Under the pieces are notes generated by a model. That model saw only the letters and a program-made list of their open reading frames with translations. It ran no database searches and was not told the DNA's origin. Both the position numbers and the translations under genes were made by a program. Source: Bacteroidota bacterium (lineage in GTDB: Bacteria > Bacteroidota > Bacteroidia > Bacteroidales > Marinifilaceae). Taken from it: a DNA stretch of 22,461 nt. The DNA lies in assembly GCA_023400335.1 (NCBI GenBank), contig JAEXFF010000354.1, positions 1 to 22,461 of the forward strand, written 5' to 3'. Of this stretch, positions 6,493-22,461 are shown one piece after another. Each line of letters opens with the position of its first letter. Within the stretch, counting starts at the first letter, position 1.

Positions 6493-7425
6493 TTACAACC
6501 TATATCTTTTCTTCTTGCGTTTCTGTGCTTGTAATTCCTCTGCCGATGTTGCATCGTAATTATTGCTATCTCCCACTGAGAAGATAGACAGTAGAGAATC
6601 TCCGATTTTGCTATTTGCTTGATTAAAAGATTGTTCATTGTTTTTCTTGTTATCAAGATTACAAGAAATCATGTTTTCTTTTTCACTGGATTGGAATATC
6701 TCTTTTTTATTTTCGCTAGTAGAATTTTGTTTTGCCTCTTTCAACTCCTGTTCCTACATTTTTAGTTTATCGTCAATGCTTCCGTTCTTCATGGTATCGG
6801 CATACTCAAAGGATTCTGATAACTGACGGTTATAGCCGAACAGTTTATCAAATCCTTGTTCTGCCTGTTGGAATAGGTTCGCACGGTCAAAGCCTCCTGT
6901 TACCGTCGCTTTCTTGGTGTTCTTATGATTGGTAAGCGGTGATAACTTCTTTTTGTTAGTTTGGTCTTTCCGGCTCACAATCAAATGACAGTGCATATTC
7001 AACTCGTTATCGGAACGGCTACGGTTAAAATGAATCTTTCCGTAAAACTTTATATCTGTTTCGGATAGCCCTTTGTTGAAATTCTTGGCATATTCAGGAA
7101 TAAATACTTCTCGAATATACCGCTTCATGGCTTCGGCTTTCTCCTGTTCGGTGTTCCCCATTAGCCGAAGTTCGCTTTCTGATGGGCTGACATGGATGGC
7201 AAAAAACTTAGCATCCGTTTTCAGTAACTGCCGGATATTGCTGTCTATATCCTTAATAACCTTTGATTTGTAGATATTATCATCCGTCAGGTTGAAAAAG
7301 CCATCGGTATAGATTCCTTTCTCCATCCGCTCCAAATCCTCATATTCCATGTATGAGGCTAATTGTCGGCTACTTCCTGCATTGTTATATGTTCCGCCCG
7401 ATGGTGGGGCAAAATCTATGTGCAT
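6493..7425 (-). pseudogene. Relaxase/mobilisation protein (DUF5712-like, MobB type), interrupted by one in-frame TAG
   Basis: The first 223 codons (7425 to 6754) begin MHIDFAPPSGGTYNNAGSSR and contain FFAIHVSPSESEL, a conserved H132, and M144-H145-C-H147-LIVSRKD, the HxH metal-binding hallmark of this Bacteroides relaxase group. A TAG at 6754-6756 stops the frame after KLKM. The same frame stays open for a further 86 codons to TAA at 6493, ending in LLSIFSVGD and a basic tail (KRKKKRYRL), as full-length members do. One nonsense change therefore splits an otherwise intact ~310-residue protein. The catalytic part precedes the stop, so a truncated nicking activity cannot be excluded. Its start lies 4 bp after the natural stop of the BfmA-like gene, so the two were probably translationally coupled. 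Confidence 0.85.
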
Positions 7426-7429
7426 GGCT

Positions 7430-8014
7430 CTATGTATTTATTAGGTTGGTAATTTCAGCCTTTAGGCTCTCTTTCCGTTTACTATCCATCACACCACAAG
7501 CGGAGAGTTCCGAATAAAGTTGAATCAGTTGAAGTAACTTTTTGTAATCCCGTTGGTGTATCTGATATAGGGCGGTAAGTTGCTTTTCCTGCTAGTTGAT
7601 TACATCGGCATGCTTGCCGAATTGTTCACTGACCTTTTGCAGTACGGCTGTTTGTCTCCCCTGACTGGATTCCAATTGGGAAAGAATAAGTGTTTCCAAT
7701 GTCTTACCAATACCATCAAACCGAACTGCAATAGAATTAGCAGTTCGTATCATGGGATTTAGTTGCTCTTCCTCGTAGTGCCGGATGAAGCGGATAATAT
7801 CATCCTGCCGTTTGTTTATCTTCGCCAGTTCCGATTTTACGGATTCCGGTGCTTCCAATGGGTTGATACACGCTTTATCAATATAGACAAATGCAAGCCT
7901 GACTATTTCCCCTTTTTTCAGCGAATAGCGTTTGCAGAGCTTATCTATTAGCTTTCCCGTCTGTCGGTCTATGCCGATGGTGGCAAGCGTGGATATATGA
8001 CTGGTCTTATCCAT
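7430..8014 (-). pseudogene. BfmA/BtgA-like mobilisation accessory protein, interrupted by one in-frame TAG
   Basis: The start at 8014 (MDKTSHISTLATIGIDRQTG) is preferred over the upstream ATG at 8074 because family similarity begins there. The N-terminal half looks like a ribbon-helix-helix-type DNA-binding region (RQTGKLIDKLCKRYSLKKGEIVRLAFVYI). Next comes the family-typical SELAKINKRQDDIIRFIRHYEEEQLNP. A TAG at 7592-7594 ends the frame after 140 residues (HADVIN). The frame then continues for 53 codons (QEKQLTALYQIHQRDYKKLL ... AEITNLINT) to a TAG at 7430-7432, 4 bp before the relaxase start. That downstream half looks like genuine former protein, so a single change (CAG to TAG is the simplest guess) probably broke the gene. 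Its role in the family is to help the relaxase act at oriT. Confidence 0.85.
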
Positions 8015-8119
8015 GATTATAACTTTTTTATAAAGAAAACGACATTTATTCAGTTGATTATAAGCGGAATACATTTTCGGCTTATAATCACTGTTATAAA
8101 CGGTTACGAATGTAACCCA

Positions 8120-8240
8120 TTAAAGCCGAAGGCTTTGCCCCGCAGGGCAAGAGGGAAGAACAGGACTTGTCCAGTTCCCTCTTGCTTCATTTAGCGAAAC
8201 GAGCCGAGCCACAGGGCGAGGCGGTTTCTGCTAAATGGGG
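8120..8240. other. Candidate origin of transfer (oriT) region with clustered stem-loops
   Basis: Upstream of the BfmA-like and relaxase genes lie several inverted repeats: AAAGCC/GGCTTT (8122-8127/8131-8136), GCCC/GGGC (8137-8148), a perfect 11-bp pair GCAAGAGGGAA/TTCCCTCTTGC (8147-8157/8175-8185), and ATTTAGCGAAAC paired with GTTTCTGCTAAAT (8189-8200/8224-8236). The DNA is GC-rich compared with its flanks. Clusters like this directly upstream of mob genes are the usual oriT setting. The nick site itself cannot be read from the sequence. Confidence 0.55.
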
Positions 8241-8268
8241 AGTGGTGGCACTTCATCAGGCGGTAACA

Positions 8269-8619
8269 TTACCCATCCTGTTTTGCATCGGTTTGCGTAT
8301 CGAGTTGATTTTCCTTTTTGAACCGTTCATAGGTCTTGCAATCAGCATTTTCTTGAACAAATGCACGAATATCAGCGGCACGGTAATAGGTCTTATGACT
8401 AATCATAAAGAAAGGGAGTTTTCCACTTGCCCGATAGCGTTGCAAAGTGCGGAAAGATACTTTCAGCAGAAAAGCTAAATCCTGATTGTCGAGTATCTTA
8501 TCATTTTCATCAAATATGGTATCGGTATTGATGAGCGATTTCAGGTCTTGCCCGATTTCAGAGAGTTTTTTCGACAGTCGTTCCATCCACCTGTCGAAGT
8601 TTTCATTGTCTATATACAT
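8269..8619 (-). CDS. Helix-turn-helix (excisionase-like, MerR/HTH_17 fold) protein
   Basis: 116 residues. Residues ~45-90 (LDNQDLAFLLKVSFRTLQRYRASGKLPFFMISHKTYYRAADIRAFV) are the classic winged HTH_17 unit: LxxxDLAxLLxVSxRTLQRYRxxGxLP, then a beta wing, then the RxxDIRxFV helix. The N-terminus is a charged helical extension. Proteins of this type act as recombination directionality factors or small regulators in Bacteroides integrative elements, which fits a place between the RteC-like gene and the oriT/mob region. It appears intact, unlike its neighbours. Confidence 0.85.
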   Translation of the reverse strand: MYIDNENFDRWMERLSKKLSEIGQDLKSLINTDTIFDENDKILDNQDLAFLLKVSFRTLQRYRASGKLPFFMISHKTYYRAADIRAFVQENADCKTYERFKKENQLDTQTDAKQDG

Positions 8620-8700
8620 TTTGCTTCAATTTTAAGTTCAACATTATTATTTTCAACCGATTGATGAAGCAAAGTTCGGCAAATGGACGCAAATAAATTA

Positions 8701-8723
8701 GGGGAATACCACTGGTATTCCCC
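8701..8723 (-). terminator. Perfect 11-bp dyad, probable terminator of the RteC-like gene
   Basis: GGGGAATACCA (8701-8711), one central base, then TGGTATTCCCC (8713-8723) form a perfect palindrome. It lies 75 bp downstream of the RteC-like stop on the minus strand and is followed there by TAATTTATTT. It also lies ~80 bp upstream of the HTH gene start, so an operator role is the alternative. Confidence 0.55.
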
Positions 8724-8797
8724 CATAAATTGATTGCATATGTCTGATTTACAATTAGTGTTTATTTGATATTTAACTAAGGTATATATCCTTCATC

Positions 8798-9331
8798 TTA
8801 GCTCTTTTTAATTATTTCGGCTTTTAGCCTATCCAAAAAGTCTACTATTTTGGCTGGCTTTCGTTTAATTACAGCTATTTCCTTTTTGTATATGTCGCCA
8901 AAAGTCACATTAAACATCTTTTCAAAGATACGAGCTACATCACTAAGAAAGATTTCTTTATGGTCTATACGAACAATTCCCCTTGATATATAGAACATGC
9001 CACAAACCAGTTCCATCATATCTACCAGTTTTATAACTTCATTATTTAGGTAGAATGATGATTTCCATTCTGATTCAATATTTATAAAGAACTTTGGATA
9101 TTCCATTTGACGGTAAATTAGTTCTTGTTCCATAGTGATTAATGACAGTAACTTATCTATAAAAACCAATTTTAGTTTATTGTTTTCTGTAGGACATGAT
9201 TCTTCCAATGCTTTAATAATAGCAAAATCAATATAGTTCATATTGAGTTGCCTGATTCGTACTTTATTATCGCTTTCTTTATTTAGGTAGTCAAATAAGT
9301 CTTCTACAAATTCCAAATAAGCAGAAGTCAT
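8798..9331 (-). CDS. RteC-like regulatory protein, probably shortened at its N-terminus
   Basis: 177 residues from the ATG at 9331. The C-terminal half resembles the RteC domain: VKLVDMMELVCGMFYISRGIV-type helices, then IFLSDVARIFEKMFNVTFGDIYKKEIAVIKRKP and FLDRLKAEI (longest readable motif VARIFEKMFNVTFGDIYKK). RteC proteins regulate excision and transfer of Bacteroides conjugative elements. Upstream in the same frame lie 24 open codons with family-like composition (ILTDKRIYQLLKHPYQVDKS), then a TGA at 9404-9406, preceded by ATG-TCA-AAC (9415-9407). The original start was probably 9415, with Trp (TGG) changed to TGA. The 9331 start may still give a shortened product. It lies convergent to nothing and divergent from the MocR gene at 9507. 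Confidence 0.7.
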   Translation of the reverse strand: MTSAYLEFVEDLFDYLNKESDNKVRIRQLNMNYIDFAIIKALEESCPTENNKLKLVFIDKLLSLITMEQELIYRQMEYPKFFINIESEWKSSFYLNNEVIKLVDMMELVCGMFYISRGIVRIDHKEIFLSDVARIFEKMFNVTFGDIYKKEIAVIKRKPAKIVDFLDRLKAEIIKKS

Positions 9332-12809: not shown

Positions 12810-13090
12810 TCCAAAGCTTTGCCCTGAAGGGGTAATCGCCCCTCCGAAACTGAACGATTAAAAAGTGAAAGAGAAATAGAGGTCAGGGAATACTGATACA
12901 GCGGCATGAAAAAGGAATGGATTTGTAATATCAGCCAATGAAAACAGCCTACATTGCTTCCATTATTTTTTAGTGTAATAAAAAAATATATGAAAAAAAT
13001 ACCGGCTTGATTTTACTTTTGTTCTTTTATAGGGTCTTTTATATAGAAGGTCCATTCGAATAGACTCACGAAGAAGAATGTGTAACATGA

Positions 13091-13483
13091 ATGTATAACG
13101 AAATAATACAAAAGACTATGTGTACAACAGGAAAATGGAAAACAGGGATACTGGTAATTGCGATGGCATTGGCTTGCGGAACTGCAAACGCACAACATTG
13201 GCATCGGCATTATCATTACCATCCGCATCGGGTAATTACCGTTGTGACTCAACCTAAGGTTATGTCTTGTGTCAGCAACTGTTTTAACCAAAAGGAACGA
13301 TTGGCAATGGCTATGGCTTACTTGGAAACAAACAAATACCTCACCGTCAAGCAGTATGCAAAAATGACACAACTTAGCAAGGCCTCAGCAGAAGCCGAAC
13401 TTGACGCATTTGTAATGGATAAAAATAAGCCTGTAAAAATGGTAATAAGAGGAAAAAAGAAAGTGTACATAAAAAATAATTAA
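13091..13483 (+). CDS. Small secreted protein with an N-terminal histidine cluster
   Basis: 130 residues from the ATG at 13091; a start at residue 10 (13118) is equally possible. Residues ~16-34 form a signal peptide ending ANA-Q. The predicted mature protein begins QHWHRHYHYHPHR, with six histidines (36, 38, 40, 42, 44, 46) alternating with other residues, which suggests metal binding. The C-terminal ~70 residues (RLAMAMAYLETNKYLTVKQYAKMTQLSK ... VIRGKKKVYI) look like a small winged-helix-type fold (helix-turn-helix then a two-stranded wing), unusual for an exported protein. It lies 63 bp upstream of the ECF sigma gene on the same strand, so it belongs to this locus as partner or regulon member. 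No named family recognised. Confidence 0.75.
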   Translation: MYNEIIQKTMCTTGKWKTGILVIAMALACGTANAQHWHRHYHYHPHRVITVVTQPKVMSCVSNCFNQKERLAMAMAYLETNKYLTVKQYAKMTQLSKASAEAELDAFVMDKNKPVKMVIRGKKKVYIKNN

Positions 13484-13546
13484 AGAAACATAATCTATGA
13501 AGTTTACAAATAAATGGAAAATAGCAACAATAGCAATCCATGATAT

Positions 13547-14089
13547 ATGGCGGCAAAGAATGACAAGGATATAATTTCAATAATGGCCAAAGACCCCGAG
13601 AAAGGTTTTCGGCTATTAATGGCAAGATACAAAGAAACGGTATATTGGCACATCCGCCGACTTGTTGTGTCACATGCTGACGCACAAGATGCAACACAAG
13701 AGACGTTTGTGCGCATATTCCGTTCCTTCAGCCAATTCAAAGGCGAATGCTCCCTGACCTCCTGGGTTTATCGTATAGCAACGAATGAAGCCTTACGCCT
13801 TTTGAGTTGTTACCGTGATGGACAGGTTTCATTGAATAACACCAATGAAGAACTAAATAAGATGATGGCTGACGATTATGTGGACTACAGCGAGTTGGAA
13901 ACGGTCAGGCTGCAACAGGCTATTCTGACATTGCCAACCAAACAGCAGCTGGCTTTCAACTTGCGATACTATAACGAATTGGGATATGATGAAATAGCCG
14001 AGATTACAGGCTCTACTCCAGAGAGTGTTAAGTCGAACTATCATATCGCCAAAGAAAAGATAATCAAATATATGAACTTAAACAATTAG
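13547..14089 (+). CDS. ECF-type RNA polymerase sigma factor
   Basis: 180 residues, a typical ECF length. Region 2 is at about residues 20-90: FRLLMARYKETVYWHIRRLV, then DAQDATQETFVRIFRSFSQFKG and SLTSWVYRIATNEALRLL. Region 4 is at about residues 120-175: LQQAILTLPTKQQLAFNLRY, then ELGYDEIAEITGSTPESVKSNYHIAKEKI. It would direct RNA polymerase to a small set of promoters when its anti-sigma lets go. It is the first gene of a tight operon (4 bp to the next gene, then 12 bp, then 7 bp), whose second product has the form of an anti-sigma protein. Confidence 0.95.
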   Translation: MAAKNDKDIISIMAKDPEKGFRLLMARYKETVYWHIRRLVVSHADAQDATQETFVRIFRSFSQFKGECSLTSWVYRIATNEALRLLSCYRDGQVSLNNTNEELNKMMADDYVDYSELETVRLQQAILTLPTKQQLAFNLRYYNELGYDEIAEITGSTPESVKSNYHIAKEKIIKYMNLNN

Positions 14090-14093
14090 ACAT

Positions 14094-14426
14094 ATGAAAA
14101 AAGAATTTGATTTTAACCGCATAGGTAAACGAATGCCCTATACCGCACCCGAAGATTTTTTAGACGATATAGAAAAGAACGTATGGGAGACTATAAAAAA
14201 ACAAGTGATGTCCTCCAAGCCTAAACGGAACTATCGCCTTTGGTATTCTATATCCGGTGCACTTGTGGCAGCAAGCATTGCGTTGTTGTTTGTCTTCAAC
14301 ATCCTGCCCGCCCATCAAAAAACGGACGATTTTGAGATGTTTGAACAAGCGTTCTCAAATTTAAGCAGCGCCGACCGGGATTATCTACTTGCCGTCTATC
14401 AGGACGACTTATTTTTAAACGAATAA
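14094..14426 (+). CDS. Single-pass membrane protein, probable anti-sigma factor
   Basis: 110 residues. The N-terminal ~45 residues are polar and cytoplasmic (FDFNRIGKRMPYTAPEDFLDDIEKNVWETI). A transmembrane helix follows at about residues 51-70 (WYSISGALVAASIALLFVFNIL). The C-terminal ~40 residues (EMFEQAFSNLSSADRDYLLAVYQDDLF) would lie in the periplasm. This small N-in single-pass layout, 4 bp after an ECF gene, is what an anti-sigma factor of the Bacteroidetes type looks like; no zinc-binding HxxxCxxC motif is present. The call rests on position and topology, with no family motif. Confidence 0.7.
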   Translation: MKKEFDFNRIGKRMPYTAPEDFLDDIEKNVWETIKKQVMSSKPKRNYRLWYSISGALVAASIALLFVFNILPAHQKTDDFEMFEQAFSNLSSADRDYLLAVYQDDLFLNE

Positions 14427-14438
14427 AAGAAATCAATT

Positions 14439-14885
14439 ATGAAAAGTATTTTTAGAATTCTTCTGCTTGCTATGGCAATGACCACTTTTTGTGTAAGCAC
14501 TTACGCCCAAAAGAATAACAGACAACGTATGACACGGGAACAATTAGCTGAAACACAGGCCAAATATATTGTGAAGGAAATGGCGATGGACGATGCAACC
14601 GCAAAAAAGTTTATCGCAACTTTTTGCCAGTTCCAAAGAGAAATCTGGGCACTCGGTCCTCGTCCCAAGAAAGATATTGCAACTCGTACGGACGAAGAAA
14701 CAGAACAAGCCCTCAAAGCTCGATTCGCACATACCCAGAAGATACTTGACCTGAGGCAGAAATATTATGAGGAATACAGCAAGTTCTTGTCGCAAAAGCA
14801 GATTAATCGTGTATATGAATTGGAAAGGAAGATGATGGACCGTCTGTACCATCGCTCTCAAAAGGAAAAACTCCATAAACAATGA
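14439..14885 (+). CDS. Periplasmic Spy/CpxP-like protein (sensor of ECF-type sigma factor)
   Basis: 148 residues with a clear signal peptide (MKSIFRILLLAMAMTTFCVSTYA-Q). The mature part is almost all helical and charged: RQRMTREQLAETQAKYIVKE, then a middle segment around FCQFQREIWAL, then LRQKYYEEYSKFLSQKQINR and VYELERKMMDRLYHR. The pattern of a long helical hairpin with a LTxxQ-like turn (here FLSQKQINRVYELE) is that of Spy, CpxP, ZraP and CnrX. In Bacteroidetes, proteins like this next to ECF genes are thought to sense envelope or metal stress and control the anti-sigma. It starts 12 bp after the probable anti-sigma gene. Confidence 0.78.
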   Translation: MKSIFRILLLAMAMTTFCVSTYAQKNNRQRMTREQLAETQAKYIVKEMAMDDATAKKFIATFCQFQREIWALGPRPKKDIATRTDEETEQALKARFAHTQKILDLRQKYYEEYSKFLSQKQINRVYELERKMMDRLYHRSQKEKLHKQ

Positions 14886-14892
14886 TTTGATT

Positions 14893-16623
14893 ATGAAAAA
14901 GATGCTGAAAACTTTCAGTTCGTATTGTTTTTCGTTTCTCCTTCTGTCCACAATAACTGCGTGTCAGGATAAGGATGAAGAAAATATCGTATCTCCCGGG
15001 GAACAAGAGCAGATTTTAACCCGGAAAAGCCTTACCGCTGTCATCTCCGATGGGCTTCATGACAATTGGAGTGCAGGCGATCTTATAATGCTGCTTCACG
15101 ATGGACAAACGGTTCTTGTAGAAGCACAGGAATCCGGACGTATGTCGAGTCTTTCAGGCACTGTCGAAGGCACTTTCACCGGTAATAACCCTTTGTATGG
15201 TGTCTATCCCGCAGATAACGTAATGTCTTATGACCATGAAAGCGTAACCATAACCGTTCCCGCCGTTCAAACGGTCAGGGAGGGCGAATATGATGAAAAG
15301 TCTGTCGTGGCAGTGGCTCGTACGGTCTCTGAATCTCTGGATTTCCATACCATTGGCGGTGGCATAAAACTTAACTTTCAGATGTCGGGCGTGACAAAGG
15401 TTGAACTGGAAAGTGTCGATGGCTATGCCCTGACCGGTACGGTCAGGAAAAAATGGGATGATCAGGGAAAGCCTTTGATTGATGAAGTAAAAAACGCGAA
15501 TTCCATCATTACATTCAGCACTTCCGGTCAGTCCGGCTTCACTCCCGGAAAAGACTATTATATCTCTGCCCTGCCTTGTGATGTCTATGGAGGATATAGG
15601 CTTTCCATATACAAGGACGGCTTGGTGGCTCATTATTTCGGCGTGCATCAGACGGTGGAACGAGCCAATTATATAACCCCTAGCGATTTGGTGGAAAGCG
15701 AGTTGGAGTTTGTCAACCCGGATGCGCCACTTGTGGAAGAAGAGCGCCCGGAGCTGGATGCTACGACAAACACCCTTCTCCACCAATATCAGAAGAACCC
15801 GACAGAAGAGAACAAGCAGGCGCTGCTGGACCAAATGGGGCTTCGCTATGATAAAGTTGTCGCACGAAAGAAAGCTAAGCTTCGCGAATTGGAGAGGGAA
15901 GCAAAAACTCCCGACCTTGTGGATGAGATGCAGGCCATTGTGGACGAGATGGTTGAAAATCGTGAAATCCGGCTGGAACAACAGTTCCTGCGGCTCATCG
16001 ATCCCCGAACCGACGACAACCCGAATGATGCCTGGATGGTGTTGCGCGGCGCATCAGCTCCGAATGCCTACATAGGTTATGCGCCTGTGACAAATGCTGA
16101 ATACGCTGCATATAAAGAAGGCTTTGTCTATGAGGCAGGAAAGGGGAACTATCCGGTAGTAAATATTACGATTGCTGAAGCCACAGCTTATTGCGATTGG
16201 CTTACGGCCCAAGACAACGCGCACGCCTATCGCCTTCCAACCGATGAAGAGTGGATTCTCGGTGCCGGTCACATGCCTAAGGATGTATCTATGAACGCTG
16301 GTCACGTGGAACACGGACTGACGGCGGTAGATGCTTACAACCAGACGACAGGGGCTTGTGGAGGCATCGATTTCTGGGGCAATTGCTGGGAGTGGACCTC
16401 ATCAACCGACGCGAGCGGTTCGTATATCGTCAAAGGAGGCAGCTGGGACTCAGAGCGTGATGATTGCCGCAGTGAGAAATCGGATGTCGTGAGAACGGGC
16501 ACACAGGGCTATGCCAATGTCGGTTTCAGAATGGTAAGGGTGGATTCGAAGATGCTGACGCTGCACGGCGAGCATCTGCAACAAGTATCCGCCAAGCTGA
16601 TACCTTCGTCGAAAAAATTGTGA
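14893..16623 (+). CDS. Surface lipoprotein: fimbrillin-like domain + helical linker + FGE-sulfatase (SUMF1-like) domain
   Basis: 576 residues from the ATG at 14893; a TTG six bases upstream is possible but less likely. The lipobox ITAC puts the lipidated cysteine at 24, followed by QDKDEEN, an acidic stretch of the kind seen in surface-exported Bacteroidetes lipoproteins. Residues ~35-275 resemble fimbrillin/Mfa-like proteins (LTRKSLTAVISDGLHDNWSA, GDLIMLL). Residues ~288-375 are charged helices (LLHQYQKNPTEENKQALLDQ ...). Residues ~380-550 form the FGE fold: YIGYAPVTNAEY, YRLPTDEEWILGAG, DFWGNCWEWTSS, VKGGSWDSERDDCRSE, VGFRMVRV. Cysteines at 489 and 498 lie near but not in the canonical catalytic arrangement, so binding or structural use is more likely than formylglycine formation. 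It is the last gene of the sigma operon. Confidence 0.82.
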   Translation: MKKMLKTFSSYCFSFLLLSTITACQDKDEENIVSPGEQEQILTRKSLTAVISDGLHDNWSAGDLIMLLHDGQTVLVEAQESGRMSSLSGTVEGTFTGNNPLYGVYPADNVMSYDHESVTITVPAVQTVREGEYDEKSVVAVARTVSESLDFHTIGGGIKLNFQMSGVTKVELESVDGYALTGTVRKKWDDQGKPLIDEVKNANSIITFSTSGQSGFTPGKDYYISALPCDVYGGYRLSIYKDGLVAHYFGVHQTVERANYITPSDLVESELEFVNPDAPLVEEERPELDATTNTLLHQYQKNPTEENKQALLDQMGLRYDKVVARKKAKLRELEREAKTPDLVDEMQAIVDEMVENREIRLEQQFLRLIDPRTDDNPNDAWMVLRGASAPNAYIGYAPVTNAEYAAYKEGFVYEAGKGNYPVVNITIAEATAYCDWLTAQDNAHAYRLPTDEEWILGAGHMPKDVSMNAGHVEHGLTAVDAYNQTTGACGGIDFWGNCWEWTSSTDASGSYIVKGGSWDSERDDCRSEKSDVVRTGTQGYANVGFRMVRVDSKMLTLHGEHLQQVSAKLIPSSKKL

Positions 16624-16772: not shown

Positions 16773-16806
16773 GGAAGGGGGCGCTCAACCTTCCCCCTTC
16801 CTTTCC
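16773..16806. terminator. Terminator between convergent genes
   Basis: GGAAGGGGG (16773-16781) pairs perfectly with CCCCCTTCC (16793-16801) across an 11-nt loop, followed by TTTCC on the plus strand. It stands between the lipoprotein gene (plus) and the membrane protein gene (minus), so it may serve both. Confidence 0.6.
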
Positions 16807-16879
16807 TTACCAAATCCTGTTCAAGGGTATTTTTAAGAAGGATCTTCTCCTTCCATATTCCTTTTCAGAAATTACTTAT

Positions 16880-17914
16880 TTATACATTATAGCCTTCCTG
16901 GCTCTTCCTGGTTCCGTAATATCCGGCCCAACAACAAAGTATGGCAGCGACCAGCATACCGAAAAAAGAAATCAAGGCAGAACGGGCAGCAGCATTGGCA
17001 GCTTTTTCTGCATCTTCCAAAGCTTTGTGTTTTACCTTTTCCCATTCCTGTTTAGCCTTCTGTAAATCTTGCTCCAGATGATTGACGATCTCTTTCGCCC
17101 GGCTGGATGCTTTGTTGATCAGATTCATATACTGGTCCACAGTCCTGTCAGCTTCAGCTTTCGACAAATTCGTATTATTGGCAATAGCCCGGCTTACGTC
17201 ATTGCGGTCGATGCCTTTAGTAAATTGTTTTGCTCTCGACTGCAAGCGGTCTGTAAACCCATCCAGCAATTTTTCTGTATTCTCCGGATTCCTGGCAATT
17301 TTTTTAACGGTCTTCTTCAGGTCTCCTTTTACGGCATCTAACTGATTATTTATATAATCCGGATTCAGTTCTTTTACACCGCTTTTTCGAAGAGCTTCCC
17401 GGATATCGCTCCGGACACTGTCTCCATTGACATTGGTGTTAAAGTCGAGGTCCCCGAATAAATCCGTCGCCTGATCGGAAAGATTCGAAATTCCCTTACC
17501 AGCCATGGATCCTACATCAGACAATACGCTTCCCGCTACAGACGACACAGAACCCAACACATTCGCAGTAACTTTGACAGCTCCTACCGCTAAAAATATC
17601 GCCATCAAAACAGCGACAATCGACGTTACCGCCCAAACGACCAAACCATGAATCACTCCATCAGCACCAGCCAACTTACCGGCGACAAAACCTCCGATAA
17701 TAAAACTGATGATCATGGAAATAGCCGTCCCGATCCCAACGGTCGCTCCAATACCAGAGGCAGGATGGTCAGACAAGGGGTTAAATTGAAATAAACCGAT
17801 ACTTGTCACCAAAATAGAAATCAGAATAGATATTGCCAGAACGGTCACAACCCCAGCAAAAATACTTCCCCAGGAAACCCTTTTCCTCGTCCGGGTAAAA
17901 TTTACTTGTTCCAT
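16880..17914 (-). CDS. Multi-pass membrane protein with a large helical loop, unknown function
   Basis: 344 residues from the ATG at 17914 (MEQVNFTRTRKRVSWG); the ATG at 17926 adds four residues. Hydrophobic segments: ~13-40 (WGSIFAGVVTVLAISILISI), ~58-80 (GATVGIGTAISMIISFIIGG), ~90-125 (VIHGLVVWAVTSIVAVLMAI), then a ~190-residue soluble region rich in charged helices (repeated small residues at 125-150, then SDIREALRKSG ... EKLLDGFTDRLQSRAKQ ... YMNLINKASSRAKEI ... DLQKAKQEWEKVKHKALEDAEK), and a last transmembrane helix near 315-335. The first 120 residues look like a YrzE/TIGR04086-type glycine-rich membrane bundle. Such proteins are usually stress-associated membrane factors, but I do not recognise this one. 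It stands alone. Confidence 0.75.
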   Translation of the reverse strand: MEQVNFTRTRKRVSWGSIFAGVVTVLAISILISILVTSIGLFQFNPLSDHPASGIGATVGIGTAISMIISFIIGGFVAGKLAGADGVIHGLVVWAVTSIVAVLMAIFLAVGAVKVTANVLGSVSSVAGSVLSDVGSMAGKGISNLSDQATDLFGDLDFNTNVNGDSVRSDIREALRKSGVKELNPDYINNQLDAVKGDLKKTVKKIARNPENTEKLLDGFTDRLQSRAKQFTKGIDRNDVSRAIANNTNLSKAEADRTVDQYMNLINKASSRAKEIVNHLEQDLQKAKQEWEKVKHKALEDAEKAANAAARSALISFFGMLVAAILCCWAGYYGTRKSQEGYNV

Positions 17915-17926
17915 CTTTGTATGCAT

Positions 17927-21834: not shown

Positions 21835-22461
21835 CTATTGGAATTGTTCCTGATTCAGCGTATAATAATTGCCTTTCAGCCGGAGTAATTCGCGGTGTGT
21901 TCCCCGTTCCACAATTTGCCCCTGTTCCATTACCAGAATCATATCGGCATTCCGTATGGTAGAAAGACGATGGGCTATGATCAGACTGGTACGTCCCTGC
22001 ATCAGTTGATCCAAGCCTTTTTGGATTAAAATCTCACTGCGGGTATCGATGTTACTGGTAGCTTCGTCCAATAGCAATATCGCCGGGTCTGCAACGGCTG
22101 CACGGGCGATATTCAACAATTGCCGTTGTCCCTGACTCAGGTTGGCACCGTCATTTTCAAGCAAGGTGTCGTATCCATGCGGCAAACGCTTGATAAACGA
22201 ATGAGCGGCTGTCAGTTTAGCAGCAGCTATGACCTCTTCATCGGTGGCTTCCAGTCTGCCAAAACGTATATTTTCACGTACAGTATCCGTAAACAGATGG
22301 GTATCCTGTAGCACAATTGCCATAGACTTACGCAAACTGTCCCGCCGGATCGTACGGATTTCTTTTCCGTCAATCCGGATTTCACCCGACCGGATATCGA
22401 AAAAACGGGGCAACATACTGAGAATAGTCGTCTTTCCTGCACCTGTAGCCCCGACTAATGC
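21835..22461 (-). CDS. ABC exporter, ATP-binding C-terminal part (partial, runs off the right edge)
   Basis: 209 codons are visible, open from the right edge (ALVGATGAGKTT at the edge) to TAG at 21835-21837. The complete nucleotide-binding core is present: Walker A GATGAGKTT, Q-loop VLQDTHLF, signature LSQGQRQLL, Walker B ILLLDEATSNID, and H-loop IIAHRLSTIRNAD. These belong to the MsbA/multidrug exporter (permease fused to ATPase) class; the membrane part should lie beyond the window. The first in-window ATG at 22416 is internal, since the Walker A loop precedes it. Substrate unknown. Confidence 0.95.
   Translation of the reverse strand, partial: ALVGATGAGKTTILSMLPRFFDIRSGEIRIDGKEIRTIRRDSLRKSMAIVLQDTHLFTDTVRENIRFGRLEATDEEVIAAAKLTAAHSFIKRLPHGYDTLLENDGANLSQGQRQLLNIARAAVADPAILLLDEATSNIDTRSEILIQKGLDQLMQGRTSLIIAHRLSTIRNADMILVMEQGQIVERGTHRELLRLKGNYYTLNQEQFQ

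What the first reader, a model, noticed from the sequence alone, without database searches (positions are those of the whole stretch)
13547..16623. CnrH/CnrY/CnrX-like envelope-stress operon that ends in an FGE-domain lipoprotein
The order sigma factor, small single-pass protein, Spy/CpxP-like periplasmic protein copies the logic of metal-sensing Cnr systems, and gaps of 4, 12 and 7 bp imply one transcript. The fourth gene, a surface lipoprotein with fimbrillin-like and FGE-like parts, has no counterpart in Cnr and would be the output or a second sensor. With the His-rich protein this could be an undescribed Bacteroidales stress system.
Basis: partly seen in the sequence, partly recalled or inferred. 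Interest (0 to 1): 0.75.

Follow-up and report, generated by a model that had tools for sequence, protein, structure and literature searches.

The report
Self-regulating envelope-stress operon of Bacteroidales
A sigma factor, its likely membrane-bound inhibitor, a chaperone-like periplasmic protein and an unusual surface lipoprotein sit in one operon behind a single dedicated promoter, so the cell appears to switch on just this one set of envelope genes under stress; it is a new variant of a stress switch very recently described in a gut bacterium.

Summary
In detail: four same-strand genes (ECF sigma, single-pass 110-aa protein, Spy-like 148-aa protein, fimbrillin+FGE lipoprotein; gaps 4, 12, 7 bp) behind an exported gene, HIS. 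Linkage is real: in 29 related loci, fetched by the Spy-like gene, the 110-aa gene is found in 29, sigma in 28 (some truncated), FGE pieces in 17, HIS in 16. Exact copies occur in 8 of 99 Bacteroides-group genomes, all holding the Spy-like or FGE gene, and in 0 of the other 91; one lies before an FGE gene on another contig. So the sigma probably serves little beyond this operon, and the FGE lipoprotein is output rather than sensor. Cnr membership is not supported. The nearest described system is CirYZ-Spy of Phocaeicola vulgatus (PMC13114119, 2026); this is a separate clade with different cargo. Signal and protein contacts remain inferred. New variant of a known kind.

The parts
13011..13038 (+). 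ECF-type promoter TTTTACTTT-N13-GGTCTT, inferred site of autoregulation
   Evidence: Footprint; 0-mismatch hit in window; genome specificity
13091..13483 (+). HIS: small exported protein, first gene of the unit (start more likely the ATG at 13118, inference); variable His/Arg/aromatic N-terminus, conserved basic C-terminal part that looks winged-helix-like (inference from sequence)
   Evidence: present in 16 of 29 related loci
13497..13574 (+). 25-codon remnant of a second small gene (His-rich lipoprotein in relatives) that overlaps the sigma start
   Evidence: remnant; gene present in 15 of 28 loci
13547..14089 (+). SIG: ECF sigma factor, 180 aa
   Evidence: Sigma70_r2, r4_2; TIGR02937
14094..14426 (+). 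ASF: single-pass anti-sigma candidate, 110 aa; hydrophobic segment 49-75; conserved C-terminal (periplasmic) tail
   Evidence: no Pfam or PDB sequence match
14439..14885 (+). SPY: exported helical Spy/CpxP-like protein, 148 aa; invariant Cys63 and His98 in 21 aligned members
14893..16623 (+). FGE lipoprotein, 576 aa, lipobox ITAC (Cys24) followed by acidic residues
15010..15711 (+). fimbrillin-fold part of the FGE lipoprotein (residues 40-273)
15760..15999 (+). highly conserved helical linker (residues 290-369)
16021..16548 (+). FGE-fold part (residues 377-552)
16777..16853 (+). two terminator-like hairpins after the operon
   Evidence: 2 found, mean 0.3 in shuffles; pattern match only

Best explanation
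A self-contained, autoregulated envelope-stress unit. At rest the 110-aa single-pass protein holds the ECF sigma at the inner membrane; its short conserved periplasmic tail is gauged by the Spy/CpxP-like protein made by the next gene. When the envelope is stressed (misfolded protein, or a ligand of the Spy-like protein) the Spy-like protein changes partner, the anti-sigma lets go or is destroyed, and the sigma transcribes essentially one promoter, TTTTACTTT-N13-GGTCTT, in front of HIS. That transcript makes more sigma, anti-sigma and Spy-like protein (amplification and shut-off) and the cargo: HIS, often a His-rich lipoprotein, and one or two exported FGE-domain proteins. In the window the FGE protein is a lipoprotein with a fimbrillin-fold front, probably on the surface, and most likely binds rather than modifies its target. 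SHOWN by computation: gene set, order, linkage, domains, promoter footprint, scarcity of the site elsewhere, an FGE gene on another contig with its own site. INFERRED: anti-sigma activity, tail-Spy contact, signal, surface location, role of the FGE domain.
For: Linkage: SIG 28, ASF 29, SPY 29 of 29 loci (the loci were fetched by SPY). From the ASF side: 39 hits in 36 of 99 genomes, 36 with SPY adjacent, including all 36 at E below 1e-9 (coordinates compared by eye). FGE and SPY orthologs are each in 7 of 99 genomes and shared by 6 (hypergeometric P 4e-8, relatedness not corrected). The ASF tail is as conserved as its cytoplasmic part: mean majority-residue frequency 0.725 against 0.716, 8 of 39 against 8 of 48 positions invariant. 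Promoter: exact at both boxes in 15 of 17 upstream regions of HIS; a relaxed form found in 25 of 28 loci. Exact site in 8 of 99 genomes, all with SPY and/or FGE, none in the other 91; reversed-pattern control 4 hits. In G010 it lies about 90 bp before an FGE gene on another contig. One-mismatch sites are not above control: 5 against 15 control hits with up to one mismatch in 6 genomes. A sibling sigma, CirY of P. vulgatus, most strongly raises its own gene, spy and two neighbouring genes when its anti-sigma is deleted (PMC13114119, section 28 read whole).
Against: No interaction or expression data. The Spy fold match does not stand clear of unrelated helical chains and the window protein reaches no Pfam cut-off. 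FGE leaves no trace in 12 of 29 loci (some contigs or fetched flanks end early) and only pieces in several more, so it is not essential to the switch. The footprint was defined on operon-bearing genomes, so sites at the operons are partly by construction; the 16-row alignment left out L012 and L019, whose boxes differ (TTTGACTTT with GGTATT or GGTTTT). The 99-genome set may favour genomes already fetched through SPY: all 7 SPY carriers in it had been. The G010 and G196 genomes are drafts, and mis-binned contigs cannot be excluded. The motif is strict, so weaker regulon promoters would be missed; the operon copy in G010 itself reads GGTCTA.
Confidence: 0.6

Rival explanations
1. RpoE-RseA style: the anti-sigma is cut by envelope proteases on stress; the Spy-like protein is only a chaperone output, not part of the switch.
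For: The sigma is closest in the PDB to SigH/RpoE/SigW; sibling operons have AACTTC-type upstream boxes, which resemble sigma-E promoters (recalled); Spy-like genes behind sigma/anti-sigma pairs are read as chaperones in P. vulgatus (PMC13114119).
Against: ASF-SPY linkage in several clades while the following genes differ and strong conservation of a short tail suggest direct partnership; but both hold also for a conserved output.
Confidence: 0.22
2. Cnr-like metal sensor: the helical periplasmic protein binds a metal and tells the inhibitor; the His-rich products buffer the metal.
Against: No His-x3-His in the mature Spy-like protein, 21 of 21; one invariant His and one invariant Cys after the signal peptide; His start of HIS not conserved; no efflux genes in the operon; CnrH only E 6e-4.
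Confidence: 0.12
3. The FGE lipoprotein is a second, surface-facing sensor that feeds the anti-sigma, as Dma/Reo proteins reach the surface themselves.
For: Bacteroidales have anti-sigmas that span both membranes (PMC13114119 passages; PMC13088901 passages); a fimbrillin fold suits surface contact.
Against: No trace or only pieces in many loci that keep sigma, anti-sigma and Spy; an FGE gene on another contig carries the sigma's own promoter, the mark of a target.
Confidence: 0.08

Closest known systems
CirY/CirZ-Spy of Phocaeicola vulgatus (PMC13114119, 2026)
   Same: ECF sigma, anti-sigma and Spy-like gene in that order; narrow regulon centred on its own operon.
   Different: Loci that I match to it by neighbours (L155: GH20, CBM9_2, M48, Glucosaminidase+LysM) have sigma 54% and Spy 34% identical to the window's and fall in another clade; no FGE lipoprotein or HIS was detected there. 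No sequence under the name P. vulgatus was among my loci, so the match rests on neighbours.
CnrH/CnrY/CnrX (Cupriavidus)
   Same: Logic: sigma, single-pass inhibitor, helical periplasmic protein.
   Different: Sequence of sigma and inhibitor, no CnrX-type His pair (ligands recalled), cargo is a surface protein instead of efflux.
Dma/Das and EcfO/Reo of Bacteroides and Phocaeicola
   Same: Bacteroidales ECF/anti-sigma pairs; EcfO has surface lipoprotein (NigD) outputs.
   Different: Their anti-sigmas span both membranes (PMC13114119 and PMC13088901, passages); here it is 110 aa with one segment.
FGE/SUMF1, EgtB and SUMF2; type V fimbrillins
   Same: Domain family of the C-terminal and fold of the N-terminal part of the lipoprotein.
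   Different: The two in one chain joined by a conserved helical linker; only one Cys near the position of the FGE copper pair (pair positions recalled).

Membership tests
CnrYXH | sigma closest to CnrH | tested here: not met
   CnrH 4cxf E 6e-4; SigH and RpoE E 2e-14; 18 of the 23 listed sequences score better than CnrH
CnrYXH | inhibitor related to CnrY | tested here: inconclusive
   profile finds no PDB chain at E 10; sequence only, very short protein
CnrYXH | periplasmic sensor with CnrX-type His-x3-His metal ligands (recalled) | tested here: not met
   none in the mature part of 21 of 21 members
CnrYXH | CnrX fold | tested here: inconclusive
CnrYXH | linked cation-efflux genes | tested here: not met
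   19 window proteins scanned (main ORFs, not every ORF); no RND or cation-efflux family; one ABC ATPase of unknown substrate at 21835-22416
CirYZ-Spy | sigma / anti-sigma / Spy in order | tested here: met
CirYZ-Spy | same clade as loci with the cirYZ neighbours | tested here: not met
   L155-L157 lie in the other main clade, support 1.0; only L155 had its neighbours scanned
CirYZ-Spy | carbohydrate hydrolase and Glucosaminidase+LysM genes downstream | tested here: not met
   FGE lipoprotein, then main ORFs on the other strand with other domains
Spy/CpxP (LTXXQ) | Pfam LTXXQ above cut-off | tested here: not met
   no match in the window protein; 1 of 21 members matches LTXXQ at E 4e-4 (its cut-off not shown)
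Spy/CpxP (LTXXQ) | helical-hairpin fold | tested here: inconclusive
Formylglycine-generating enzyme | FGE-sulfatase domain | tested here: met
   24 of 24 aligned members at E 0.1 or better; the window protein above cut-off
Formylglycine-generating enzyme | copper Cys pair of the active site (positions recalled) | tested here: not met
   Cys525 in 24 of 24, partner position 520 Ser in 23 and Ala in 1; best PDB profile match is SUMF2
Type V fimbrillin | FimA/Mfa-like fold | tested here: met

The most novel reading that the evidence does not exclude
A 'private' sigma factor: an ECF sigma kept for one promoter, building a surface module in which a pilin-like lipoprotein presents a rewired FGE fold beside small His-rich lipoproteins, i.e. 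a stress-induced surface machine that captures or modifies metal- or thiol-linked ligands.
Probability: 0.2. Interest if true: 0.75.

Novelty: new variant of a known kind. Interest (0 to 1): 0.5.

Why it matters
B. thetaiotaomicron alone has 50 ECF sigma factors, many of unknown role (PMC12596196, passages), and in 2020 no promoter motif was known for any of them (PMC7366714, passages). Here a two-box promoter can be read by comparison alone, predicts a near one-operon regulon and names the outputs; the sigma, the signal and the odd fimbrillin-FGE lipoprotein become testable with a single reporter. It also suggests that sigma/anti-sigma/Spy is a recurring Bacteroidales module with exchangeable neighbours: FGE lipoprotein here, an outer-membrane barrel gene in 10 of 16 sibling loci fetched (only one of the ten scanned with Pfam), peptidoglycan and glycan enzymes beside a cirYZ-type locus.

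Tried and rejected
Rejected: (1) a housekeeping promoter. The window reads TACTTTTG at 13014-13021, which fits the Bacteroides TAnnTTTG box quoted in PMC7366714 (passages), but the final G is kept in only 2 of 16 aligned sequences, while TTTTACTTT and GGTCTT are in all 16 (L012 and L019, which differ, were not in that alignment). (2) A wider regulon: one-mismatch sites do not exceed the reversed-pattern control; weaker sites cannot be excluded. (3) A conserved His cluster in HIS: present in the window, lost in others such as L006 and L010. (4) Mirror-tree correlations (0.825 to 0.885 among 23 sequences sets, window included) are high for all three pairs, as expected for one operon, so they do not show contact. 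(5) Fold search could not separate Spy, CnrX, ZraP and DUF3826-like folds. (6) The FGE model is poor in the FGE part (mean pLDDT of the whole 62.5), so active-site geometry was not judged. (7) Paper searches: an FGE lipoprotein in an ECF operon gave no paper, nor did LTXXQ; of the listings the one paper that I recognised as reporting a sigma/anti-sigma/Spy locus in this phylum is PMC13114119. I opened five papers; the other listed papers I did not. The library lacks most subscription papers; the ECF re-classification paper is not held.
Full report
OBSERVATION. Pfam recognises the sigma (r2 and r4_2) and the FGE domain (PF03781, E 6e-15); the 110-aa, 148-aa and upstream HIS proteins have no match above a Pfam cut-off.

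LINKAGE. A genome-collection scan with the Spy-like family gave 24 loci in Bacteroides, Parabacteroides, Phocaeicola and neighbours. These loci were fetched by SPY, so the SPY count is by construction. Seen from the other side, a search with the ASF profile in 99 Bacteroides-group genomes gave 39 hits in 36 genomes; 36 of 39 have the Spy-like gene adjacent, including all 36 with E below 1e-9; the three weak hits do not (compared by eye). FGE and SPY orthologs are each in 7 of 99 genomes and shared by 6. The hypergeometric P of 4e-8 ignores relatedness, and the set may favour genomes that I had already fetched through SPY: all 7 carriers had been.

DECAY AND PATCHINESS. The unit is patchy (SPY ortholog at E below 1e-30 in 7 of 99 Bacteroides-group and 6 of 38 Parabacteroides-group genomes) and often eroded: L006 keeps 47 FGE codons; L011 keeps scraps of a first FGE copy before a long second one; L022 and L108 keep fragments; L017 runs off its contig; sigma is shortened in L006, L018 and L022. 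The Parabacteroides chinchillae copy (L007) falls in a clade with four Bacteroides copies and the window, support 1.0, which hints at transfer between genera.

PROMOTER. Upstream regions showed a shared two-box element: both boxes TTTTACTTT and GGTCTT are exact in 15 of 17 regions before HIS; L012 and L019 differ (TTTGACTTT, with GGTATT or GGTTTT). In an alignment of 16 sequences, the 15 plus L008, which has no HIS and was chosen through the motif scan, the invariant columns are the two boxes and two A just downstream. A relaxed form is found in 25 of 28 loci (not in L018, L019, L083): before HIS where HIS is detected, 76-120 bp before sigma in L013, L020, L021 and L023. Sibling operons have elements such as ATTTAACTTC with TTCTAAC, or TTGAACTTC with GGTCTA, before their sigma. 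In the window the site is 13011-13038, the only hit with fewer than 3 mismatches.

REGULON. In 6 operon-bearing genomes the exact site occurs once each, always at the operon; 5 further one-mismatch hits compare with 15 hits of the reversed control at up to one mismatch. In 99 genomes the exact site occurs 8 times, in 8 genomes that all hold SPY and/or FGE orthologs, and in none of the other 91; the reversed control has 4 hits. Six of the 8 sites are at operons. One, in G010, lies about 90 bp before an FGE gene on another contig than the operon, with an unrelated gene just upstream (L150); the operon's own site there reads GGTCTA. One, in G196, is 82 bp from a contig end and its context is unknown; that genome's FGE copy starts another contig. 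Both are draft genomes. The motif came from operon-bearing genomes, so the empty 91 and the separate FGE gene are the independent evidence. I infer a sigma with few targets beyond its own operon, and FGE proteins as targets.

MECHANISM. Best reading (0.6): anti-sigma gauged by the Spy-like protein; stress frees the sigma; one promoter; amplification plus cargo. Steps shown: genes, linkage, domains, promoter, site scarcity. Steps inferred: sigma binding, tail-Spy contact, signal, surface display, binding role of the FGE part.

COMPARISON. Cnr is a likeness of logic, not kinship. The nearest published system that I found is CirYZ-Spy of P. vulgatus (PMC13114119: section 28 read whole; other passages), induced more than 130-fold in colitis; the authors also mention a second sigma/anti-sigma/Spy locus next to a SusC/D pair. 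A locus that I match to cirYZ by its neighbours (L155: GH20, CBM9_2, M48, Glucosaminidase+LysM), with L156 and L157, falls in a clade apart from the window type. Other sibling loci in the Bacteroides group carry a large same-strand gene after Spy in 10 of 16 fetched; the one scanned is an OMP_b-brl_3 barrel. Whether the second P. vulgatus locus is window-type cannot be told here: no sequence under that name was among my loci.

Noticed in passing
window 6754-9331: DUF5712, an excisionase-like HTH_17 and an RteC-like gene suggest a piece of a conjugative or mobilisable element upstream of the operon (roles recalled).
   Followed up: no
L003 8896-10248, L004 8898-10262, L007 8896-10251: Second FGE copy in tandem with a signal-peptidase-I type leader instead of a lipobox: paired lipoprotein and soluble forms.
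   Followed up: partly
L004 5904-6116, L010 5900-6130, L022 6358-6570: Small (70-76 aa) His-rich lipoprotein gene whose end overlaps the sigma start by 17 nt; no Pfam match for the one scanned (L004).
   Followed up: partly
L089 3645-7888 and similar loci: Sibling operon sigma/anti-sigma/Spy followed by a large same-strand gene in 10 of 16 sibling loci fetched, OMP_b-brl_3 in L089, with its own AACTTC-type upstream box.
   Followed up: partly
window 13039-13090: The leader between the -10 box and HIS is also fairly well conserved (consensus AGAACGTCCATTC...GAGCTCACGAA); role unknown.
   Followed up: no
window 16880-17926: 348-aa protein on the opposite strand with hydrophobic ends and a helical-looking middle, no Pfam family above cut-off.
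   Followed up: no
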